Shown here: positions 2,827 to 50,963 of the stretch, piece by piece | Numbering within the stretch: position 1 is the first letter of the stretch | Layout: every line of letters begins with the position of its first letter | Position numbers and translations under genes: made by a program | NCBI RefSeq assembly: GCF_021172045.1 | Contig: NZ_CP087164.1 | Span: forward strand, 4,960,001 to 5,024,000 | Direction: 5' to 3' | Source: Capillimicrobium parvum | GTDB taxonomy: Bacteria > Actinomycetota > Thermoleophilia > Solirubrobacterales > Solirubrobacteraceae | Length of the DNA: 64,000 nt | Notes under the pieces: generated by a model | Told to the model about the DNA's origin: nothing | Databases searched by the model: none | Seen by the model: only the letters and a program-made list of their open reading frames with translations

Positions 2827-3587
2827 GGCTTGAGCTTGTGCCCGGTCCGGAACAGCCATGACGACCACGCGACCATCACCGCCGCCAGCACCGCGGTCAC
2901 GCCGAGCGCGAGGACGACGCTGACGTCGCTCGTCCCGAGGAACCCGTAGCGGACCGCCTGCACGATGTAGAAGATCGGGTTGGCGTGGGAGAGCTCGCGC
3001 CACGGCTCGGGCAGCAGGTCGACCGAGTAGAAGACCCCGCCGAGGAACGTCAGCGGCAGGATCACGATGTTGTTGACGAAGCCGGCGTGGTCCCACGATT
3101 CGGCGTAGATGCCGACGACCACGCCGAGCGACGAGAACAGGGTCAGCGCGAGCGCAACGGCGACGATCAGCACGAGCGGCTCGTGGATCGGCACCCCCGT
3201 GACCGGGAGGCTGAGGAGCAGGAGCGACACGCCGATCAGCAGCGCGCGCACGACCCCGCCGAGCGTCAGGCCGAGGTTGATCTCCCAGCTGCGCATCGGC
3301 GAGGCGAGGATGTCGTTGAGGTAGCGGTCGAACCGCGCCTGGAAGACGGTCGCCGAGTTGTTCGCGTAGGCCGCCTGGATCATCGCCATGGTGACGAGGC
3401 CGGGAACGATGAAGATCTCGTAGTCGACGCCGTCGACCTGCTTGATGCGCGAGCCGAGCGACAGGCCGAAGACGAGGATGAACAGGAACGACGAGACGAC
3501 CGGCGCGGCGATCGTCTGCGACCAGAGCTTCAGGACGCGGACGACCTCGCGGTGCGTCAGCGCCAGCAAACCGTGCATGCCGCTCAT
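2823..3587 (-). CDS. ABC-2 type exporter permease
   Basis: Membrane half of an ABC exporter, 254 residues with six hydrophobic segments and the ABC-2 family pattern. An amphipathic N-terminal helix is followed by the FDRYLNDILASPM loop, and PLTFLGGVFYSVDLLP with HANPIFY lies near the C-terminus. This is the layout of the YadH/NodJ-like group. The start ATG at 3585-3587 overlaps the stop of the ATPase gene (ATGA), so the two are translated together. Substrates of such exporters include drugs, lipids and polysaccharides; nothing here narrows it down. Confidence 0.88.
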   Translation of the reverse strand: MSGMHGLLALTHREVVRVLKLWSQTIAAPVVSSFLFILVFGLSLGSRIKQVDGVDYEIFIVPGLVTMAMIQAAYANNSATVFQARFDRYLNDILASPMRSWEINLGLTLGGVVRALLIGVSLLLLSLPVTGVPIHEPLVLIVAVALALTLFSSLGVVVGIYAESWDHAGFVNNIVILPLTFLGGVFYSVDLLPEPWRELSHANPIFYIVQAVRYGFLGTSDVSVVLALGVTAVLAAVMVAWSSWLFRTGHKLKP

Positions 3588-4315
3588 GCCGCCTGCGCCA
3601 TCGCCTTCACGTAGACCTCGGCGAGCGTGTCGGCGTCGAACGCGCTGCGCAGGTTGTCGGCGCTGTCGCGGGCGAGCAGCTGCCCGCCGCGGATGAGCGC
3701 GATCTCCTCGCAGAGCTCCTCGGCCTCCTCGAGGTAGTGCGTCGTCAGCAGGATCGTCGTGCCGCCCTCGTGCAGGCGGCGGATGTAGCGCCACAGCTCG
3801 ACGCGCAGCTCGAAGTCCACGCCGGCGGTCGGCTCGTCGAGGATGACCAGGCGCGGCTCGTGCATGAGCGCGCGGGCGAGCAGCAGGCGCCGGCGCATCC
3901 CGCCGGACAGCATGGGGGCGCGGACGCCGGCCTTCGCGCGCAGGTCGAAGACGTCCATCATCTCCTTCGCGCGGCGCCGCGCGTCCGCGCGCGACATGCC
4001 GTAGTAGCCGCCGTGGAAGAGGAGCGTCTCCTGGACGTCGAGGAAGCGGTCGAGGTTGACGTCCTGCTCGGCGAGGCCGATGAGCCGGCGCGCCTCCCAG
4101 GTGCGGTGGTCCTCGCCGAAGACGCGCAGCTCGCCGCCGGTGACGCGGATGAGGTTGCACACGGCGCTGATCAGGGTCGTCTTGCCGGCGCCGTTGGGGC
4201 CGAGCAGGCCGAAGAAGGCGCCGTCGGGGATCGTCAGGTCGAGCCCGTCGAGGGCGAGGAAACCGCCGTCGTAGCGCTTCGTGAGCTGCGTGATCTGCAG
4301 AGCGGGCTCGGGCAT
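3584..4315 (-). CDS. ABC exporter ATP-binding protein
   Basis: Nucleotide-binding subunit (243 residues) that powers the adjoining ABC-2 permease. Visible motifs are Walker [10 protein letters not shown] near residue 40, a Q-loop in LAEQDVNLD, signature LSGGMRRR, Walker [13 protein letters not shown] and the switch histidine in [10 protein letters not shown]. The DEPTAGVD and EEAEE segments are of the YadG/NodI/CcmA drug-type exporter group. It is the first gene of the minus-strand unit ATPase-permease-EamA. Upstream it is divergent from the aldo/keto reductase gene across 74 bases. Confidence 0.93.
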
Positions 4316-4389
4316 GGGCGAACGCCCAGACGGTAGAGGGATGGGACCGCGGTCCGGGACCGCTCGTCCGAAGGCGTAGCGTTCGGGCC

Positions 4390-5370
<981 letters not shown>

Positions 5371-9323: not shown

Positions 9324-9368
9324 CGAGGGTCGAGTTTCTTCGCGTACGGCTGAGGAAGTCGACGCTCG
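9324..9368. repeat. dispersed palindromic element, family 1, copy 1
   Basis: Arms of 10 bases (9324-9333 and 9359-9368, one mismatch) enclose a 25-base centre. Read on the minus strand it is the same element as 46309-46355: the arm CGAGCGTCGA, then CTTCCTCAGCCGTA and so on, with only three differences. It sits between the convergent MMPL and thioredoxin genes. Just after it the 12-mer GACGCTCGGCGG occurs twice (9361-9372 and 9378-9389), ending next to the thioredoxin stop codon. Confidence 0.85.
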
Positions 9369-40541: not shown

Positions 40542-42323
40542 TTGCACAGCGGCGAACTCATTCTCGTGGCCGGTGCCCTGCTGGCCGGCGGGGTCGCCGC
40601 GTCGTTGCTCGCCCGGAGGGTCCGGCTGCCGGGCCTCGTGCTGTTCCTCGGGCTCGGCATGCTCGTCGGTTCGGACGGGCTCGGCTGGATCAACTTCAAC
40701 GACTACGAGCTCGCCCAGACGATCGGCATCATCGCCCTCGCGCTCATCCTCTACGAGGGCGGGCTGAGCGCGGGGTTCGGCGAGATCCGGCCCGTCCTCA
40801 GGCCCGCGCTGTCCCTGGCCACCGTCGGCACGCTGATCACGGCCCTGATCACGGGCTACGCCGCATCCGAGATCTTCGACCTGCCGCTCCTCGAGGGCCT
40901 GTTGATCGGCGCCGTCCTGTCCTCGACGGACGGCGCGGCGGTCTTCGCCCTGCTGCGCGGATCGACGCTGCGCCGCCGCCTGGCGCGGACGCTCGAGGGC
41001 GAGGCCGGCTTCAACGACCCCGTCGCGGTCCTCCTCGTCCTGGGCTTCATCGAGTGGCTCGAGAACCCGGACTACGGCGTGCTCGACCTCCTCTGGAAGT
41101 TCGTCCAGGAGATGACGATCGGGGGGGTGGTCGGGCTCGCGGTGGGCGTGGGCGCGGTCGCCGTGTTCCGCCGCGCCCGGCTCGAGACCGCCGGCCTGTA
41201 CCCCGTCGCCTCGGTCGCCGCCGCGGCGCTCTCGTACGGCGCGGCGAGCGTCCTGCACGGCTCGGGCTTCCTGGCCGTCTACCTCGCCGGCCTCGTGCTC
41301 GGCACCGGCCAGATCCCGGCGCGCGCCACGATCTCGGCGTTCCACGAGGGGCTCGCATGGGTCGCGCAGATCACGATGTTCCTCACGCTCGGCATCCTCG
41401 TCTTCCCGTCGACGCTGCTGGACTACTGGTGGCAGGGCACGCTGCTCGCGCTGATCATCTGCTTCGTCGCGCGCCCGGTCGCGACGTTCACCTCGACCGC
41501 CTTCCAGGGCTTCTCGGTGCGGGAGCAGACGCTGCTCGGCTGGGCCGGCCTTCGCGGGGCGGTGCCCGTCGTCCTGGCGATCTTCCCGGTCATCGCCAAC
41601 GTGCCGCACGACGACGAGCTGTTCAACATCGTCTTCTTCGCCGTCGTCATCTCGACCATCCTCCAGGGCGTCAGCTTCGTCCCGCTCGCGACGAAGCTGG
41701 GCGTGACGACCGACGAGCCGGCGCTGCCCAAGCCCCTCATGGAGACCGGCACGGTGCGCGCGCTCGGCGCCGAGGTCGTCGAGTACCCGGTCGCCGAGGG
41801 CGACGCGATCGTCGGCCGACGCGTACGCGAGCTCGGGCTGCCGCGCGACTCGCTGCTGAACGTCATCGTCCGCGACGGGCAGGCGCTGCCGCCGCGCGGG
41901 TCGTCGCGCATCGAGGCCGGCGACCGCCTCCACGTGCTGGTCGTCAAGGACGTCGCGAACGAGTTCCAGGCCCTGCTCGAGCGCTGGCGCCACGGGCCGT
42001 TCGACGAGATCCCGCGCCGGCGTCCCGCCATCTACGGCCGCCAGGTCATCTTCTCCACGCGCCCGTGGGACGACGATCTCGGCGATCCGGCGCGGCCCGC
42101 CGCGGTCGCCGGCGTGCCGGTCATCGAGCGCATGCGCACGCGGCGCGACACGCGCGGCGCGCTCGTCGCCCTCGACGACGGCCGCTACGCGGTCACCGGC
42201 CCGTCGCTCGCGGTGGGCTCGGCGTCCGACCTGCAGCGCTACGCCCGCCGGCGCCTGGAGAAGGCGCGCAGCGAAGCGGAGCGCGGCTGGTGGCAGGAGG
42301 TCATCGGCGCGGTGGCGCGGTGA
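40542..42323 (+). CDS. K+/H+ (cation/proton) antiporter with TrkA-C domain
   Basis: A 593-residue CPA-type antiporter of the NhaP2/CvrA group. Twelve hydrophobic segments include ALILYEGGLSAGF, STDGAAVFALLRG and GEAGFNDPVAVLL, the last holding the Asn-Asp transport residues. A cytoplasmic TrkA_C domain follows (about 400-470; VGRRVRELGLPRDSLLNVIVRDG), which senses nucleotides or ions, and a C-terminal 110-residue cytosolic tail. The TTG start at 40542 lacks a clear ribosome site; a leaderless start is possible. It would expel K+ or Na+ in exchange for protons, complementing the Kdp importer encoded further on. Confidence 0.92.
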   Translation: MHSGELILVAGALLAGGVAASLLARRVRLPGLVLFLGLGMLVGSDGLGWINFNDYELAQTIGIIALALILYEGGLSAGFGEIRPVLRPALSLATVGTLITALITGYAASEIFDLPLLEGLLIGAVLSSTDGAAVFALLRGSTLRRRLARTLEGEAGFNDPVAVLLVLGFIEWLENPDYGVLDLLWKFVQEMTIGGVVGLAVGVGAVAVFRRARLETAGLYPVASVAAAALSYGAASVLHGSGFLAVYLAGLVLGTGQIPARATISAFHEGLAWVAQITMFLTLGILVFPSTLLDYWWQGTLLALIICFVARPVATFTSTAFQGFSVREQTLLGWAGLRGAVPVVLAIFPVIANVPHDDELFNIVFFAVVISTILQGVSFVPLATKLGVTTDEPALPKPLMETGTVRALGAEVVEYPVAEGDAIVGRRVRELGLPRDSLLNVIVRDGQALPPRGSSRIEAGDRLHVLVVKDVANEFQALLERWRHGPFDEIPRRRPAIYGRQVIFSTRPWDDDLGDPARPAAVAGVPVIERMRTRRDTRGALVALDDGRYAVTGPSLAVGSASDLQRYARRRLEKARSEAERGWWQEVIGAVAR

Positions 42324-42472
42324 CCGCTTCGCTCCAGGCCTCCCAGCTTCGCTCCCAGAATGCGGAAGGTGACCGCTCCGCTGGTCGGCCACGTCGGTGA
42401 CCGCTTCGCTCCCGGCCTCCCAGCTTCGCTCCCAGAATGCGGAAGGTGACCGCTCCGCTGGTCGGCCACGTC
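42319..42472. repeat. 77-bp direct tandem duplication at the antiporter stop codon
   Basis: Units 42319-42395 and 42396-42472 are identical except for one base. The first unit starts two bases before the antiporter's TGA, so the second carries a copy of the stop. Within each unit the phrases TGACCGCTTCGCTC and TGACCGCTCCGCTGG are themselves similar, pointing to older slippage. The gap ends at the stop of the convergent fur-family gene. Confidence 0.93.
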
Positions 42473-42480
42473 ACATCGGC

Positions 42481-42918
42481 TTATGAAGCGCAGCGGGCGC
42501 ACTCGCCGTGGAGGACGACGTCGTGCTCGCCGACGGTGAACGCCGGCACGCGGTCGGCCAGCCGCGCGATGGTGCGCTCGAGCTCGGGATCCTCGAACGG
42601 CTGGACGGTGCCGCAGGTGTCGCAGACCATGTGATGGTGGTGGTCGCCGCCGGGCAGCGCGGCCTCGTAGCGCGCGGTGCCCTGCCCGACGTCGAGCCGG
42701 CTGACGAGATGCAGCTCGTCGAGCTGCTCGAGCGTCCGGTACACCGACGCGCGGCCCACGGCGCGGCCGTCGGCGCGCAGGCGGTCCTCGATCTCGGCCG
42801 CGGTCATGGCGCAGTGGCCCTTGGCGAGAAGCTCGATCACGGCCCTGCGCGAGGCGCCCCGCCGGTACCCCGCGTCGGTCAGCCGCGCCTCTGCGTGCTC
42901 GATCCACTCAGCGCTCAC
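42481..42918 (-). CDS. zur: Fur-family metalloregulator, probably Zur
   Basis: A 145-residue Fur-fold protein. The winged helix is at 15-80 (TAAEIEDRLRADGRAVGRASVYRTLEQL in part), then the metal sites: HHHHMVCDTCG (His cluster and first CxxC) and the C-terminal CARC. The two CxxC pairs bind structural zinc. Its start overlaps the stop of the zinc permease gene (four bases), so it is part of the znu-like operon; this context rather than the sequence favours Zur over Fur. It would repress the operon when zinc is plentiful. Confidence 0.9.
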   Translation of the reverse strand: MSAEWIEHAEARLTDAGYRRGASRRAVIELLAKGHCAMTAAEIEDRLRADGRAVGRASVYRTLEQLDELHLVSRLDVGQGTARYEAALPGGDHHHHMVCDTCGTVQPFEDPELERTIARLADRVPAFTVGEHDVVLHGECARCAS

Positions 42919-43760
42919 GACGCCCCCGAGGGTAGTGGCCCCACCAGCGCGCCCCGAGCCGCCCGCGCGACGAGCGCGGTGGCCCAGAGCGCGACCGTCA
43001 CGAGCGCGATGGAGGCGCCCGCCGCGGTCCCCGCGTGGTAGCTGAGCAGCAGCCCGCCGAGCCCGCCGGCGACCGCGACGCCGACCGCCACGGCCATCAT
43101 CGCCGGCATCCGATGGGCCACGAGCCGGGCCGTCGCTCCCGGGCCCACGAGGACGGCGACGACGAGCAGGTTGCCGAGGCCCTGCACCGCGACGAGGATC
43201 GCGGCGGCGACGAGGACGAGCAGCGCGGCGTCGACGACGGCCGGGGATGCGCCGAGCGAGCCCGCGGTCGAGCGGTCGAAGCCGACGGCCAGCAGCCGGC
43301 CGTGCAGCAGGCGCAGCGCGACGACCACGGCGATCGCCAGCGCCGCGGCGAGCCGCAGGTCGCCGTCGCTGACGCCGAGCACGTCGCCGAACAGCAGCTC
43401 CCCGAGCCCGGGCGGCGTGGCGCGCGACAGCGCGAGCAGCACGCCGGCCCCGAGCAGCGCCGTCACGACCACCGCGACCGCGTTGTCGCGGCCGATGCCC
43501 GGAACCCGCCCGGCGAGCGCGACCGCCAGCGCGGCGACGACCAGGCCGGCCGCCCCACCGATCAGGATCGGGATGCCGACGAGCGCGGCCGCCACCAGGC
43601 CGGGGAAGAGCGCGTGGGCCAGCGACTCGGTGCCGTACGCGAGCTCGTAGAACACGATCCAGCAGCCGAGCAGGCCGCCGGCGATGCCGAGCAGGACGAC
43701 CTCCAGCGCGGCGCGCTGGACGATCGGGTCCGAGAACGGGTCGGCGAGCCAGTCGATCAT
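42915..43760 (-). CDS. znuB: zinc/manganese ABC importer permease (ZnuB-like)
   Basis: A 281-residue ABC-3 family permease with eight or nine hydrophobic segments. Family elements: CWIVFYELAYGTESLAHALFPG near the start, a SDGDLRLA loop and GNLLVVAVLVGPGATARLVAHRM. ATG at 43758-43760 overlaps the ATPase stop (ATGA). A second permease of the same family is fused to the binding protein upstream, so the importer probably uses a permease heterodimer. Confidence 0.92.
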   Translation of the reverse strand: MIDWLADPFSDPIVQRAALEVVLLGIAGGLLGCWIVFYELAYGTESLAHALFPGLVAAALVGIPILIGGAAGLVVAALAVALAGRVPGIGRDNAVAVVVTALLGAGVLLALSRATPPGLGELLFGDVLGVSDGDLRLAAALAIAVVVALRLLHGRLLAVGFDRSTAGSLGASPAVVDAALLVLVAAAILVAVQGLGNLLVVAVLVGPGATARLVAHRMPAMMAVAVGVAVAGGLGGLLLSYHAGTAAGASIALVTVALWATALVARAARGALVGPLPSGAS

Positions 43761-44518
43761 GCGCGATCGGGCTCGTGGTCGTGATCGTGGTGGTGCGCGG
43801 GCATCACGCCGCGCCCCCCGCCCGGCAGCTCGACGACCTGCGCGCCGTACGTGCGCTCGAGCACGGGCCGCGTGAGCACCTCGTCGGGCGCGCCGAACGC
43901 GATCTGCGCGCGGTTCAGGCAGAGGACGAGGTCCCACGCGCGCGCCTGGTCCACCTCGTGGGTCGAGATCAGGAGGCCGCGCCCGTCGGCGGCGAGTTCG
44001 GCGAGCAGGCCTTCGAGGCGCCGCGAGCTCGGCTCGTCCAGGCCGGTGAACGGCTCGTCGAGCAGCAGCAGGCCGGCGTCCTGCACGAGCGCCCGGGCGA
44101 TCAGCACCCGCTGGCGCTGGCCGCCGGACAGCTCGCCGAAGGTCCGCCGCGCCTCGGCGCCGAGGCCGACCCGCTCGAGGGCCTCGCACGCCGCGCGGCG
44201 ATCGGCGCGGCCGGGGCGCCGCCACCACGGCAGCCGCGCGAGCGTGCCCATGAGCGCGACGTCGAGCGCGCTGACCGGGAAGTCCAGCCGCGAGCGCTCG
44301 GTCTGCGGCACGACGGCGCAGCGGGTCGCGACCGCCAAGCCGCCCCGGACGACGGGCAGCTCGCCGAGCACCGCGCGAAACAGCGTGGTCTTGCCGCCGC
44401 CGTTGGGGCCGAGCAGCCCGACGCGCTCGCCCGCCCGCAGCGTGAAGTCGAGCCCGTCGATGGCGGGCGCGCCGCCGTAGCCGCCGCTGAGATCGCGGGC
44501 GCGGACGAGGACGGTCAC
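43757..44518 (-). CDS. znuC: zinc/manganese ABC importer ATPase (ZnuC-like)
   Basis: A 253-residue ATPase: Walker A GPNGGGKTT, signature LSGGQRQRVLIARAL, Walker B LLLLDEPFTGLD and the switch His in STHEVDQAR. The C-terminus ends in a histidine-aspartate run (HHHDHDHE), a feature of zinc transport components such as ZnuC. GTG 44516-44518 overlaps the fusion gene's stop (GTGA). Confidence 0.93.
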   Translation of the reverse strand: MTVLVRARDLSGGYGGAPAIDGLDFTLRAGERVGLLGPNGGGKTTLFRAVLGELPVVRGGLAVATRCAVVPQTERSRLDFPVSALDVALMGTLARLPWWRRPGRADRRAACEALERVGLGAEARRTFGELSGGQRQRVLIARALVQDAGLLLLDEPFTGLDEPSSRRLEGLLAELAADGRGLLISTHEVDQARAWDLVLCLNRAQIAFGAPDEVLTRPVLERTYGAQVVELPGGGRGVMPAHHHDHDHEPDRA

Positions 44519-46263
44519 GCCGCACCCCCGCCGCAGCGCACCGTGCCGCCGCTCATCCCGCGCGCGATCGCGTCTGCGTTGTGACGCTCGGCCTGCAGGT
44601 ACGTGGCGCCGCTGGAGCCCTCCGGCCCGAGCGTGTCGCCGTACAGGGTGCCGCCCACGGCGGCCCGGGTCTGCTCGGCGATCGCGCTCGCCAGCTTGCG
44701 GTTGACCGAGCTCTCCGGGAAGACCGCGCGCACGCCCTCGTCGCGGATCGTGCGGACCAGGGCGGCCACCTCGCCCGCCGATGCCTGCGCCCGCGTCGTC
44801 TGCGACGGGATGACCGCGCCGACCACGTCGAGGCCGTAGCGGTGGGCGAAGTAGCCGAGCGCGTCGTGGTCGGTGACGAGCTTGCGCTGCCCGTCCGGGA
44901 CGCGGTCCAGGCACCGGCGGGTCTCGGCATCGAGGGCGCGCAGGCGCGTGACGTAGGCGTCGGCGCGGCGCGCGAACGCCGCGCGATGCGCCGGGTCGGC
45001 CCGGGTCAGCGCGGCCTGGATCTCGCGCGTCGCCGCGATCGCGTTGCGCGGGTCGTGCCACCAGTGCGGGTCGTGGTCCTCGTCGCCGTGATCGTGCGCG
45101 TCGTCCCCCCCGAGCGCGACCGGCAGCCGCGCGCTGAGGTCCGCGACGTCGCCGTCGGCGCCGCCCTGGTCGACCACGTCGCCGATCCAGTGGTCAAGGC
45201 CGAACCCGCTGACGAGGATGACCTTCGCCTCGGCGGTGCGCACGACGTCGGAGGGGCGCGGCTCGTACTCGTGCGGATCGGAGTTCGGCTGCAGGAGCTG
45301 GGTGACCTCGACCGCATCCCCGCCGACCTGGCGGGCCAGGTCGGCGACGACCGGCGTCGTGGCCACGACCTGGAGGCGATGGGGGTCGGGCGACGAGCCG
45401 CAGCCGCCGGCGACGAGCGCGGCGGCGACGGCGGCCAGCGCCGCGAACGCCGCGGCCCGGCGCACCCGCAGGACGCGGACGACGGCCGCGGCGGCGAACA
45501 CGGCGCCTGAGATGGCGGCGATCGTCGCGCCGGGCGGCGCATCGGTCTGGACGGACAGCCACAGCCCGGCGGTCCCCTCCACCGCGGCGAGCGCGACCGT
45601 GGCGATCTGCCAGGGGCGCAGGCGGTCGCAGAGCATCCGGGTCGTCACGGCCGGCACCACGAGCAGCGCGGTGGCGAGCAGCGCGCCCACCGCCGACAGC
45701 GCCGCGACGGCGGTGATCGCGACGAGCGCGAGCAGCACGGTCTCGGGCAGGCGCGAGCGCAGGCCGAGCGCCCGCGCCGAGCTCGGATCGAAGCCCTCGG
45801 CGAGCCACTGCCGGCCGAGCAGGAGCGTCGCGGCGAGGACCAGGGCGGCGGCGGCGGCGGCGATCGCCACGTCGCTCCAGCTGATGAGCAGCAGCGAGCC
45901 GAACAGCAGCGTGTCGACGTTGGCGGCCGAGTGGAACACGTCCGAAGCGAGCACGACGCCGCCGGCGAGGCAGGCGACGAGGACGAGCGCGGTCGGCGGG
46001 CCGTGCTCGTCGCGCCCCCGGCGAACGACCACCGCGACGCCCGCGGTGAACAGCGCCGCGGCCCCGAGTGCGCCGAGCGTCGCCGCGAAGCCGAGGCCGT
46101 CCGCGACGACCAGGCCGGGGAACGTCGCCGTGCCCACCGCGTGCGCGTGGAAGGCGAGCCCACGGAGCACGATCCACGTCCCGAGCAGGCCGCTGGCGAG
46201 CGCGAGCAGCAGGATCTCCACGAGCCCGCGCTGGACGAAGGGAAGCGCGAACGGCTCCAACAT
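44515..46263 (-). CDS. fusion of an ABC-3 permease and a zinc-binding lipoprotein-like domain (ZnuB-ZnuA)
   Basis: One 582-residue reading frame encodes two importer components. Residues 1-265 are a permease with eight or nine helices (GLAFHAHAVGTATFPGLV, TTRMLCDRLRP). Residues 270-295 are hydrophobic and end in LVAGGC, a lipobox-like sequence now in the middle of the protein. Residues 300-582 are a ZnuA-type binding protein: QLLQPNSDPHEYEP, a His-rich loop (GDDAHDHGDEDHDPHWWHD, shown within limit), DHDALGYFAHRYGL and AVFPESSVNRKLA. The binding domain would stay tethered through the extra helix. No stop or start codon pair separates the halves. First gene of the operon that ends with zur. Confidence 0.9.
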   Translation of the reverse strand: MLEPFALPFVQRGLVEILLLALASGLLGTWIVLRGLAFHAHAVGTATFPGLVVADGLGFAATLGALGAAALFTAGVAVVVRRGRDEHGPPTALVLVACLAGGVVLASDVFHSAANVDTLLFGSLLLISWSDVAIAAAAAALVLAATLLLGRQWLAEGFDPSSARALGLRSRLPETVLLALVAITAVAALSAVGALLATALLVVPAVTTRMLCDRLRPWQIATVALAAVEGTAGLWLSVQTDAPPGATIAAISGAVFAAAAVVRVLRVRRAAAFAALAAVAAALVAGGCGSSPDPHRLQVVATTPVVADLARQVGGDAVEVTQLLQPNSDPHEYEPRPSDVVRTAEAKVILVSGFGLDHWIGDVVDQGGADGDVADLSARLPVALGGDDAHDHGDEDHDPHWWHDPRNAIAATREIQAALTRADPAHRAAFARRADAYVTRLRALDAETRRCLDRVPDGQRKLVTDHDALGYFAHRYGLDVVGAVIPSQTTRAQASAGEVAALVRTIRDEGVRAVFPESSVNRKLASAIAEQTRAAVGGTLYGDTLGPEGSSGATYLQAERHNADAIARGMSGGTVRCGGGAA

Positions 46264-46264
46264 G

Positions 46265-46275
46265 AGACTGAGTCT
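46265..46275. promoter_or_regulatory. 11-bp palindrome directly before the zinc operon
   Basis: AGACTGAGTCT, a perfect inverted repeat about a central G, ends two bases before the ATG of the fusion gene. The sequence around it (TAAGAAGTAGACT on the minus strand) is the most AT-rich of the area and has no ribosome site, consistent with a promoter/operator and perhaps a leaderless message. It does not match the usual Zur box closely. Confidence 0.4.
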
Positions 46276-46308
46276 ACTTCTTATTTGTGCCCCGCGCCCC
46301 TGCGCCCA

Positions 46309-46355
46309 CCGAGCGTCGACTTCCTCAGCCGTAGGCGCAGAAACTCGACGCTCGG
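46309..46355. repeat. dispersed palindromic element, family 1, copy 2
   Basis: Perfect 11-base arms CCGAGCGTCGA (46309-46319) and complement (46345-46355) flank the same 25-base centre as copy 1 at 9324-9368, with two differences. The gene context differs: here it lies upstream of the zinc operon, there between convergent genes. Confidence 0.9.
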
Positions 46356-46623: not shown

Positions 46624-47190
46624 TCAGAAGTGACCGCGCACGCCGGCGCCCGACACGCTGAGGTGGTCGGCCGGGTCCGGCCGCAGGATGACGACCTCGG
46701 CGGGTGCCTTCTCCAGCAGCCACACCAAGTCGTCGCCCGACAGACCGGCGTGCGCGTCATTGGTCGCCGGGACGACGACGCGGTCGACCTGCTCGCCGGC
46801 CAGCAGCTGCTCGAGGGCGTGGCGCGGTGTGCGACCCCGGCTCACCCGCGCGTCGACCGCGACGTCCTGGCGCGCCGCGAGCTGCTCGATCGCCTCGAGG
46901 ACCGGCATGCCATTCGCGCACTGGCGCGGCAGCGGCGCGTCGAGCGCGAGCGTGCGCGGCACGGTCGCCAGGAATGCGGGCATGAGCGTGGCCTCCTCGG
47001 CCCGGGCGAGACGCAGCGCCGCGTCGAGCGCGCGCCGCGAGATGGCAGTCCCCGCGAACGGGAGCAGGATGCGGCGGACCTCCCCGGCGCCCCGGGCGCG
47101 GCGGGTCCGGCGGCGCCGGCCGATCTCCACGGCGCCGGCGGCGCCGGTCACCAGGCCGATGACGAGCGCGAGCAGGTGCCAGGCCGTCAT
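46624..47190 (-). CDS. membrane-anchored universal stress (Usp) domain protein
   Basis: A 188-residue protein: one N-terminal helix (WHLLALVIGLVTGAAGAV), a basic linker RRRRTRRAR and a Usp-type domain beginning RRILLPFAGTAISRRALDAAL, with VDRVVVPATNDAHAGLSGDD as a partial nucleotide loop (the G-x2-G-x9-G motif is not complete). ATG overlaps the truncated KdpD stop (ATGA) and has GGAGG upstream. Because KdpD normally contains a Usp domain, this protein may serve the same potassium-sensing system. Confidence 0.85.
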   Translation of the reverse strand: MTAWHLLALVIGLVTGAAGAVEIGRRRRTRRARGAGEVRRILLPFAGTAISRRALDAALRLARAEEATLMPAFLATVPRTLALDAPLPRQCANGMPVLEAIEQLAARQDVAVDARVSRGRTPRHALEQLLAGEQVDRVVVPATNDAHAGLSGDDLVWLLEKAPAEVVILRPDPADHLSVSGAGVRGHF

Positions 47191-48311
47191 CGCGTCTCCT
47201 CCATGCGGCGGGAGCGGTCGGCGACGATGCGCACGTCGACGCCGGGCGCGGCGCGCATCAGCCGCTGCGGCAGCGGCGTCCGCCAGCGCGCCAGGCCGCC
47301 CGAGCGCATCGACTCGCCGACGAGCAGGTATGTCGCGCTGCGCTCGCGGGCGACGCGCGCCGCGACCTCCACCACGTCGTCTCCGTCCTCGACCAGCATC
47401 CGGCACCCGAGCACGGAGCACAGCTGGCGCAGCGCCCCCAGCCCGCGCTCCTCGTCCTCGGTGGCCGCCCGGCCCGGCGCCTTGACCCACAGGACGTCGA
47501 GGTCCGCGCCGAGGCGCTGGGCCGACCGCCACGCCCGGCGGACGAGGCGCTGGGCGCTCGGAACGGGACGCACGAGGGCGAGCAGACGCTCGCCGACGGC
47601 GACGCGCGCCTCGTCGAGCACCCGATCGTCGCGGGTGCCGAGCACCGGGTCCACCTCGATGCGCTGGGCGCCGACCTCCTCGGCGACCTGGCGCAGCGCG
47701 GTCTCGCGCAGCGCCCGCAGGTTCTCGATCCGGAAGAAGCCGTTCAGCGCGGCCTCGATGCGCTCGGCCGGGTACACCTTGCCCGCCCGCAGGCGCTCGA
47801 GCAGCTCCTCGGGCGTGAGGTCGGCGATGACGATCTCGTCCGCGCGCTTGAGCACCGAGTCCGGCACCGTCTCGCGCACCGTGATGCCGCTGAGCTCCGC
47901 GACCATGTCGTTGAGCGACTCGAGGTGCTGGACGTTGACGGTCGACAGGACGTCGACACCGGCGTTCAGGGCGTCCTCGATGTCCTCGTAGCGCTTGCGA
48001 TGCTCGAGGCCCGGCGCGTTCGTGTGGGCGAGCTCGTCGATCAGGCACAGCTCCGGCGCCCGTCGCAGGATGGCGGGCAGGTCCATCTCCTCGAGCTCCG
48101 TCGCCCTGTAGTCGACGCGCCGGCGGGGCAGGATCTCGAGGCCGTCGGCCGCCGCCAGCGTGGCGGCCCGGCCGTGGGTCTCGAGCAGTCCCACGACCAC
48201 GTCGCGGCCGGCCTCGAGCTCGGCCCGGCCCTCCTGCAGCATGCGCACCGTCTTGCCCACGCCGGCCGCCATGCCGAGGAACACCTTGTAGTGGCCGCGG
48301 CCGTCGCGCAT
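47187..48311 (-). CDS. kdpD: truncated KdpD: sensor (KdpD plus Usp) half without histidine kinase
   Basis: Contains only the cytoplasmic N-terminal half of KdpD, 374 residues. The KdpD domain has Walker A GMAAGVGKT (13-21), LLETHGR, ELAHTNAPG and DVLSTVNVQHLESLND; a Usp domain follows (about 240-370; VRPVPSAQRLVRRAW). The usual DUF4118 helices, GAF and histidine kinase are absent: the gene ends and a Usp gene overlaps it. The missing half is at 58114-59505. Short KdpD proteins of this kind are known from cyanobacteria. An upstream GTG (48329) overlapping the kdpB stop is an alternative start. Confidence 0.93.
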   Translation of the reverse strand: MRDGRGHYKVFLGMAAGVGKTVRMLQEGRAELEAGRDVVVGLLETHGRAATLAAADGLEILPRRRVDYRATELEEMDLPAILRRAPELCLIDELAHTNAPGLEHRKRYEDIEDALNAGVDVLSTVNVQHLESLNDMVAELSGITVRETVPDSVLKRADEIVIADLTPEELLERLRAGKVYPAERIEAALNGFFRIENLRALRETALRQVAEEVGAQRIEVDPVLGTRDDRVLDEARVAVGERLLALVRPVPSAQRLVRRAWRSAQRLGADLDVLWVKAPGRAATEDEERGLGALRQLCSVLGCRMLVEDGDDVVEVAARVARERSATYLLVGESMRSGGLARWRTPLPQRLMRAAPGVDVRIVADRSRRMEETR

Positions 48312-48321
48312 CCCCGACCGC

Positions 48322-50381
<2,060 letters not shown>

Positions 50382-50385
<4 letters not shown>

Positions 50386-50963
50386 CGAGCCTCCGTGTCG
50401 AGAGCGAGGTTGAGCTCGGTCACGTTCACGCCGGACTCACCGACGAAGCCGAGGAACCGGCCGCTGGTGTGGTCGTCGATGAGCTGCTTGACCCGGTCGA
50501 GCGGGATGTTGCGCACCGCCGCGACGCGGCGGGCCTGGATCTCGGCGTTATCCCTGGAGATGAGCGGGTCGACGCCGGAGCCCGAGGTGGTCACGGCATC
50601 GATCGGTATGTCCGCCACCGTCAGATCGCGGTTGTAGGGGCGCTCGCGCCGGAGGTACCTGGCGGCCTGCGCGTCGTAGAACGCCTTGGCCGACCGCTGG
50701 TTCGGGCCGCGGTTGGAGAAGAACGTCGCGGCCGGGTCATAGCCCGTCTGCGAGGGGCGCGGATGAAACCAGCGCGGTCCGGTCGTCTTCTGCGCGAGCA
50801 GCTTCGAGCCGACGACCTTGCCGTCGCGCTCGATCTGGGATCCGTTGGCGTTGCCGGGGAACGCCACCTGGCCGATCCCGGTCATGACGAGCGGATAGGC
50901 GAGCCCGAGCAGCAGCGTGAAGACCACGACCGCCACCACGGAGCTGATGAGCGTCTTCTTCAT
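50382..50963 (-). CDS. kdpC: potassium-transporting ATPase subunit KdpC
   Basis: A 193-residue subunit with one N-terminal helix ([19 protein letters not shown]) and a periplasmic domain. Typical segments are [24 protein letters not shown] and the [15 protein letters not shown] motif. KdpC stabilises the KdpA-KdpB complex and helps couple ATP hydrolysis. It lies ten bases after kdpA and overlaps kdpB. Confidence 0.97.

What the first reader, a model, noticed from the sequence alone, without database searches (positions are those of the whole stretch)
44515..46263. Permease and binding protein of the zinc importer fused in one polypeptide
A ZnuB-type permease runs without a stop into a ZnuA-type binding protein, joined by a hydrophobic segment ending LVAGGC that was evidently once a lipoprotein signal. 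The binding domain is thus tethered by a transmembrane helix instead of a lipid. A second permease, ATPase and Zur gene follow, so two permeases with different architectures may pair.
Basis: seen in the sequence. Interest (0 to 1): 0.6.

Follow-up and report, generated by a model that had tools for sequence, protein, structure and literature searches.

The report
Zinc importer fusion with internal lipobox
In this soil-type actinobacterium and many of its relatives, the membrane channel and the metal-catching protein of a probable zinc importer are encoded as one long protein, yet the lipoprotein processing signal between them has been kept nearly unchanged, so the cell probably lipidates, and may also cut, the protein at that point.

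Summary
ORF 44515-46263 (-) is one uninterrupted 582-aa frame: ABC-3 permease (8 TM helices, best solved match PsaC) joined to a ZnuA/AztC-type binding protein. It is not an error: the same in-frame fusion occurs in 46 genomes of the class (Thermoleophilia), in several families and orders, and in none of about 320 sampled genomes of the phylum outside it.

The junction is not a relic. Gly287-Cys288 of the lipobox are kept in 54 and 52 of 55 fused proteins (1 and 3 changes on the tree; linker median 23), with a basic n-region and 15-22 uncharged residues. Internal start codons are not conserved. So the internal lipoprotein signal is under selection. The likeliest mechanism is lipidation by Lgt at Cys288, and probably a cut by LspA, giving a permease and a separate lipoprotein. 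A permanent tether remains the main rival; it may apply to the three Cys-less lineages.

The second permease probably forms an obligate heterodimer with the first: their transmembrane metal residues are invariantly asymmetric (His/Thr versus Glu/His). A Fur-type palindrome precedes the operons. New variant of a known kind. Processing is inferred, not shown.

The parts
44515..46263 (-). Fused permease / metal-binding protein, 582 aa, ATG start
   Evidence: conserved fusion
45460..46263 (-). Permease half (PERM1), residues 1-268, 8 transmembrane helices
   Evidence: Pfam ABC-3; AF2 helices; PsaC 7kyp Z 31.7, rmsd 3.1 A over 267 residues
45403..45459 (-). Internal lipoprotein-type signal: residues 269-287 (basic n-region Arg268-Arg269, hydrophobic stretch, lipobox to Gly287)
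   Evidence: AF2 helix 272-285
45400..45402 (-). Cys288, predicted lipidation site (TGC)
   Evidence: kept in 52 of 55 fused proteins, 3 changes on the tree against a linker median of 23
44545..45381 (-). Metal-binding (SBP) half, residues 295-573; conserved His331, His400, His466, Asp543
   Evidence: Pfam ZnuA; AztC 5kzj Z 37.4, rmsd 1.4 A; conservation 53-55 of 55 rows
46141..46143 (-). His41 of PERM1, at the place of PsaC Asp46; Thr45 stands for PsaC His50
43757..44518 (-). ABC ATPase, GTG start, 4-nt overlap (GTGA) with the fused gene
   Evidence: Pfam ABC_tran
42915..43760 (-). Second permease (PERM2), 281 aa, with the canonical-type Glu45/His49 pair
   Evidence: Pfam ABC-3
42481..42918 (-). 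Fur-family regulator (Zur-like by context), GTG start
   Evidence: Pfam FUR
46263..46277 (-). Candidate regulator box GTAGACTCAGTCTCA (contains inverted repeat AGACT-C-AGTCT) touching the start codon
   Evidence: homologous boxes TGAGAAYGRTTCTCA upstream of fused operons of relatives

Best explanation
The gene makes a fused precursor of a cluster A-I (probably zinc) ABC importer. The permease half inserts with its C-terminus in the cytoplasm; the following segment is a working lipoprotein signal that carries the binding protein out. Lgt then lipidates Cys288, and LspA probably cuts between Gly287 and Cys288, leaving the permease with an extra C-terminal helix and the binding protein as a lipid-anchored neighbour made in equal amount. 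The permease pairs with the second, different permease of the operon and two copies of the ATPase; a Fur-family (Zur-like) repressor controls the operon. Shown: the fusion, its conservation, selection on the lipobox, permease asymmetry, and the palindrome. Inferred: topology, lipidation, cutting, heterodimer, metal. Estimated: lipidation about 0.7, cutting about 0.5.
For: Lipobox Gly287 54/55 and Cys288 52/55, 1 and 3 parsimony changes on a tree built without the linker, against a linker median of 23. Basic n-region in 52/52 and 15-22 residues to Cys (median 17), similar to the free lipoproteins of unfused relatives. Lgt in 12/12 and LspA in 11/12 genomes searched. An lgt gene lies next to the operon in all four genomes of one family, same strand in two. 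Internal starts not conserved: 14 of 46 have no ATG/GTG/TTG in the useful range, only 3 have an SD-like tetramer. PERM1 matches PsaC over residues 1-268; the C-terminus of a PsaC homologue is placed in the cytosol (PMC8487065). Metal residues: PERM1 His in 52/52 aligned rows and Thr/Ala; PERM2 Glu 50/51 and His 52/52. A second fusion, to PERM2, also keeps a lipobox (VGC).
Against: Three fused lineages have lost the Cys: G001 (same genus as the window), G021 (Patulibacter minatonensis) and G354; so the lipobox is not indispensable. In the genome with the PERM2 fusion (G031) no LspA was found, though that assembly is incomplete. Selection on the Cys speaks for lipidation; it does not by itself show cutting. 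I know of no natural example of LspA cutting after a polytopic membrane protein, and no protein-level data exist here.
Confidence: 0.52

Rival explanations
1. Permanent tether: the fused protein stays whole, with the binding domain held by a ninth membrane helix as in OpuA; Cys288 may or may not carry a lipid.
For: OpuA works this way, by a transmembrane anchor and an 11-residue linker (PMC11065425). Three lineages keep the fusion without the Cys. The frame is open and the fold fits.
Against: A plain anchor needs no Gly-Cys pair, yet the pair is among the best conserved parts of the protein; in OpuA anchor and linker are stated not to be conserved even within one order. A helix that is lipidated but uncut is not excluded.
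Confidence: 0.38
2. Internal translation start: a separate lipoprotein is made from a start codon inside the linker (GTG at residue 267 in the window), besides or instead of the fusion.
For: The window has GTG 21 codons before the Cys, giving a good signal peptide, (V/M)RRAAAFAALAAVAAALVAGGC.
Against: No SD there; 14 of 46 relatives have no start codon in range and only 3 any SD-like tetramer. The permease has no stop codon, so the fusion is made in any case.
Confidence: 0.06
3. The fusion is an artefact of a base error that hides a stop and a start.
For: The other three junctions of the operon are 4-nt overlaps, so a hidden overlap could be imagined here; one relative, G205, does show a frame break.
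Against: 46 independently assembled genomes, closed ones included, show the same open frame.
Confidence: 0.01

Closest known systems
AztABC / cluster A-I zinc importers (AztC of Paracoccus denitrificans, 5kzj/5w57)
   Same: Binding-protein fold (Z 37.4, rmsd 1.4 A, 34% identity), conserved His/His/His/Asp set, His-rich loop, ABC-3 permease.
   Different: There the binding protein is a separate gene product. The window protein is below NCBIfam's AztC cut-off (247.8 against 350) and AztB cut-off (150.1 against 280), and it has two unlike permeases.
PsaBCA / MntBC-A manganese importers (7kyo, 7kyp)
   Same: Permease fold of residues 1-268 (Z 31.7).
   Different: Homodimeric permease with Asp46 and His50 in each copy (PMC11779740); here two permeases, His/Thr and Glu/His.
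OpuA of Lactococcus lactis
   Same: Binding domain in one chain with the transmembrane domain, through a membrane helix (PMC11065425).
   Different: Another transporter family; its anchor and linker are not conserved, and I know of no conserved lipobox there; here Gly-Cys is nearly invariant.
YtgCR of Chlamydia trachomatis
   Same: A metal-transport permease made as one chain with another domain and cut afterwards (PMC7755916); that it is of the same permease family is from established knowledge.
   Different: The partner is a cytoplasmic DtxR-like repressor, not an exported binding protein.

Membership tests
Cluster A-I (ABC-3/ZnuA) metal importer | ABC-3 permease, ZnuA-type binding protein and ABC ATPase encoded together | tested here: met
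   Pfam ABC-3, ZnuA, ABC_tran above cut-offs
Cluster A-I (ABC-3/ZnuA) metal importer | Conserved metal ligands in the binding protein | tested here: met
   His331 55/55, His400 53/55, His466 and Asp543 53/55 with gaps in the rest; that these are the ligands rests on homology to AztC/TroA
Cluster A-I (ABC-3/ZnuA) metal importer | Transports zinc rather than manganese or iron | not testable with these tools
   His466 and the His-rich loop favour zinc (established knowledge of TroA/AztC against PsaA); no transport data
AztABC equivalog | Curated NCBIfam score of AztC and AztB | tested here: not met
   AztC 247.8 of 350; AztB 150.1 of 280 (fused) and 162.7 of 280 (PERM2)
Anchored repeat-type ABC transporter (TIGR03770/TIGR03772) | Curated NCBIfam score | tested here: not met
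   119.6 of 296.8 and 160.4 of 350.45
Bacterial lipoprotein | Basic n-region, hydrophobic stretch and lipobox ending in Cys | tested here: met
   52 of 55 fused proteins, the window's included
Bacterial lipoprotein | Signal at the N-terminus of the protein | tested here: not met
   The signal follows 268 residues of permease, and internal starts are not conserved
Bacterial lipoprotein | Lipidation of the Cys by Lgt and cutting by LspA | not testable with these tools
   Both enzymes are encoded in the genome
ABC importers with fused binding domains (OpuA type) | Binding domain and transmembrane domain in one translated chain | tested here: met
   (open frame; translation itself not observed)
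ABC importers with fused binding domains (OpuA type) | Mature transporter keeps the covalent link | not testable with these tools
   The conserved lipobox makes it doubtful; needs protein-level data
Zur regulator | Fur-family protein that answers to zinc | tested here: inconclusive
   Pfam FUR met; NCBIfam Fur, PerR and Zur models all far below their cut-offs; operon position and palindrome suggest Zur

The most novel reading that the evidence does not exclude
A bacterial class widely makes its zinc importer as a polyprotein: the lipoprotein machinery (Lgt, LspA) cuts a polytopic membrane protein at an internal lipobox to release the binding protein, fixing the ratio of permease to binding protein at one to one in an obligate, asymmetric permease heterodimer.
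Probability: 0.42. Interest if true: 0.7.

Novelty: new variant of a known kind. Interest (0 to 1): 0.52.

Why it matters
If the internal lipobox is used, signal peptidase II can mature an internal signal that follows eight membrane helices: a natural way to build a polyprotein in bacteria, and a reason to look for lipoboxes away from N-termini, where lipoprotein predictors do not look. If it is not cut, it is the first cluster A-I importer known to me with a tethered binding domain, with at most one per heterodimer, which makes the role of tethering in metal import testable. The invariant His/Thr against Glu/His asymmetry of the two permeases also offers a natural test of which half of the pore holds the metal.

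Tried and rejected
Base error at the junction: rejected, 46 genomes share the frame. Internal start codon as the general solution: not conserved. Fusion in Firmicutes (Enterococcus, Lactobacillus, Leuconostoc, Sporosarcina hits): the genes there are adjacent but separate. Fusion elsewhere in the phylum: none among some 320 genomes outside the class at E <= 1e-60; weaker fusions cannot be excluded. Literature for a described permease/binding-protein fusion in this family or for internal LspA cutting: nothing found in the open library, which lacks most subscription papers. Viral structure library: no match. Some 'permease only' rows of the tree (L108, L167, L168) end at or near contig ends, so the 10 fused/unfused changes are an upper figure; L102 is a frame break and not a clean split. 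The first family scans of the ATPase used a wrong frame and were repeated.

Full report
OBSERVATION. The frame 44515-46263 on the minus strand is one open reading frame of 582 codons. Pfam finds ABC-3 at residues 8-261 and ZnuA at 299-568. The window lies in a 5.95-Mb closed genome, and ZnuA-family proteins occur in it only once; the only hits of the fused query there are this gene and the second permease of the operon. Genus- and family-mates carry record titles such as Solirubrobacteraceae, Patulibacter and Paraconexibacter, so the organism is a member of Solirubrobacterales, class Thermoleophilia (by inference from these relatives).

NOT AN ERROR. Whole-genome searches and operon maps show the same in-frame permease/binding-protein fusion in 46 genomes, 55 non-redundant permease-1 fusions after adding named contigs, down to 34% identity with the window. 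It spans at least six family codes and more than one order of the class. Of about 320 sampled genomes of the phylum outside the class none showed a match across both halves, and the Firmicutes hits are adjacent separate genes.

OPERON. The usual order is permease 1 = binding protein, ATPase, permease 2, Fur-family regulator. In the window the three remaining junctions are 4-nt overlaps (GTGA, ATGA, GTGA), so loss of the same kind of stop is a simple origin for the fusion (inference). Other states exist. Solirubrobacter has the same order with two separate genes. Conexibacter has permease 1, ATPase and permease 2 together and the binding protein elsewhere in the genome. In one lineage, G031, the binding protein is fused to permease 2 instead: a separate fusion event. 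On the permease tree the fused state needs up to 10 changes (shuffled mean 21.4), so it is clustered and probably old, with repeated separations or regains; direction cannot be told without a root.

THE JUNCTION IS STILL A LIPOPROTEIN SIGNAL. In 55 fused proteins, aligned, with a tree built without the linker, Gly287 changes once and Cys288 three times, while the other linker columns change a median of 23 times, and the permease and binding-protein columns a median of 9 and 12 times. All 52 Cys-bearing rows have a basic n-region and 15-22 residues (median 17) between the last charged or polar residue and the Cys, close to the free lipoproteins of unfused relatives. AlphaFold gives a short, low-confidence helix 272-285 there. 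Gly-Cys is of no obvious use to a plain membrane anchor; its conservation says the lipobox is used. Lgt is present in 12 of 12 and LspA in 11 of 12 genomes examined, and in all four genomes of one family an lgt gene sits next to this operon, on the same strand in two of them. Three lineages have lost the Cys: G001, whose stretch even holds an Arg; G021, Patulibacter minatonensis; and G354, where an Ala-rich end looks like a type I signal peptidase site. So the fusion can also live without lipid.

INTERNAL START? The window has a GTG 21 codons before the Cys, but without a Shine-Dalgarno sequence; 14 of 46 fused loci have no start codon from 34 to 14 codons before the Cys (or the equivalent place), and only 3 have any SD-like tetramer. 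Internal initiation is thus not the general solution.

STRUCTURE AND TOPOLOGY. The model (pLDDT 88, pTM 0.85) has eight long membrane helices, the short junction helix and a binding-protein domain. Residues 1-268 match PsaC (7kyp, Z 31.7, rmsd 3.1 A, 267 aligned); residues 295-573 match AztC (5kzj, Z 37.4, rmsd 1.4 A, 272 aligned). The C-terminus of the homologue baMntC is placed in the cytosol (PMC8487065), so a helix after residue 268 would run outwards and put the binding protein outside (inference). His331, His400, His466 and Asp543 are conserved and correspond to a His/His/His/Asp metal site of the TroA/AztC kind (homology; established knowledge), which with the His-rich loop favours zinc over manganese.

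TWO UNLIKE PERMEASES. PsaC Asp46 and His50 coordinate manganese in the membrane (PMC11779740), and the equivalent residues are essential in MntBC-A (PMC8487065). At these places permease 1 has His (52 of 52 aligned rows) and mostly Thr or Ala, never His; permease 2 has Glu (50 of 51) and His (52 of 52). This holds in fused and unfused loci. The simplest reading is an obligate heterodimer with an asymmetric metal path, hence at most one fused binding domain per transporter (inference).

REGULATION. Upstream of 33 of 36 fused operons a 15-base palindrome close to TGAGAAYGRTTCTCA matches at 9 or more of 12 scored places, against about 1.1 of 36 expected from shuffles (the consensus was read from the same sequences, so the contrast is somewhat flattered). 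The window's own box, GTAGACTCAGTCTCA at 46263-46277, is a weaker match that touches the start codon. With the Fur-family gene at the end of the operon this suggests self-regulation by a Zur-like repressor; the regulator's metal is not shown.

MECHANISM AND RIVALS. Most likely the chain inserts as permease plus signal, Lgt lipidates Cys288 (about 0.7) and LspA probably cuts (about 0.5), giving permease and lipoprotein in equal amounts. The main rival is a permanent tether as in OpuA, whose anchor and linker, in contrast, are stated not to be conserved (PMC11065425). A cut fusion of a metal permease is known from chlamydial YtgCR, with a quite different partner (PMC7755916). No protein-level data bear on the present case.

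NOVELTY. Each domain is ordinary. Fusions of transport and binding domains are known in other ABC families. What appears undescribed in the papers I could search is this fusion in cluster A-I importers, its wide conservation in the class, and a selected lipobox inside a polytopic protein. The open library is incomplete, so 'undescribed' is provisional.

Noticed in passing
42318-42471: A 77-bp unit stands twice in tandem, 99% identical, just downstream of the Fur-family gene.
   Followed up: partly
46624-50963 (-): A Kdp potassium-pump group (KdpC, KdpB) with a KdpD that by Pfam holds only the sensor domain and no kinase domain (47187-48329), then a Usp-domain protein with a hydrophobic N-terminus (46624-47190).
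   Followed up: partly
46310-46354 and about 9324-9368: A 45-bp element with complementary ends (CGAGCGTCGA / TCGACGCTCG) upstream of the fused operon occurs once more in the genome, inside this window, with 3 mismatches.
   Followed up: partly
L095 (G031), 3020-4738 (+): A separate fusion of the binding protein to permease 2 rather than permease 1, again with a lipobox (VGC); no LspA was found in that genome.
   Followed up: partly
L094, L097, L098, L099: An lgt gene (prolipoprotein diacylglyceryl transferase) is the direct neighbour of the fused operon in four genomes of one family; it is on the same strand in two and convergent in two.
   Followed up: partly
46141-46143 and 43614-43628: The two permeases differ invariantly at the transmembrane metal residues (His/Thr against Glu/His) in all operons examined.
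   Followed up: yes
L102 (G205): A fused gene interrupted by a frame break and apparently missing about 20 codons in two places; assembly error or decaying copy.
   Followed up: no
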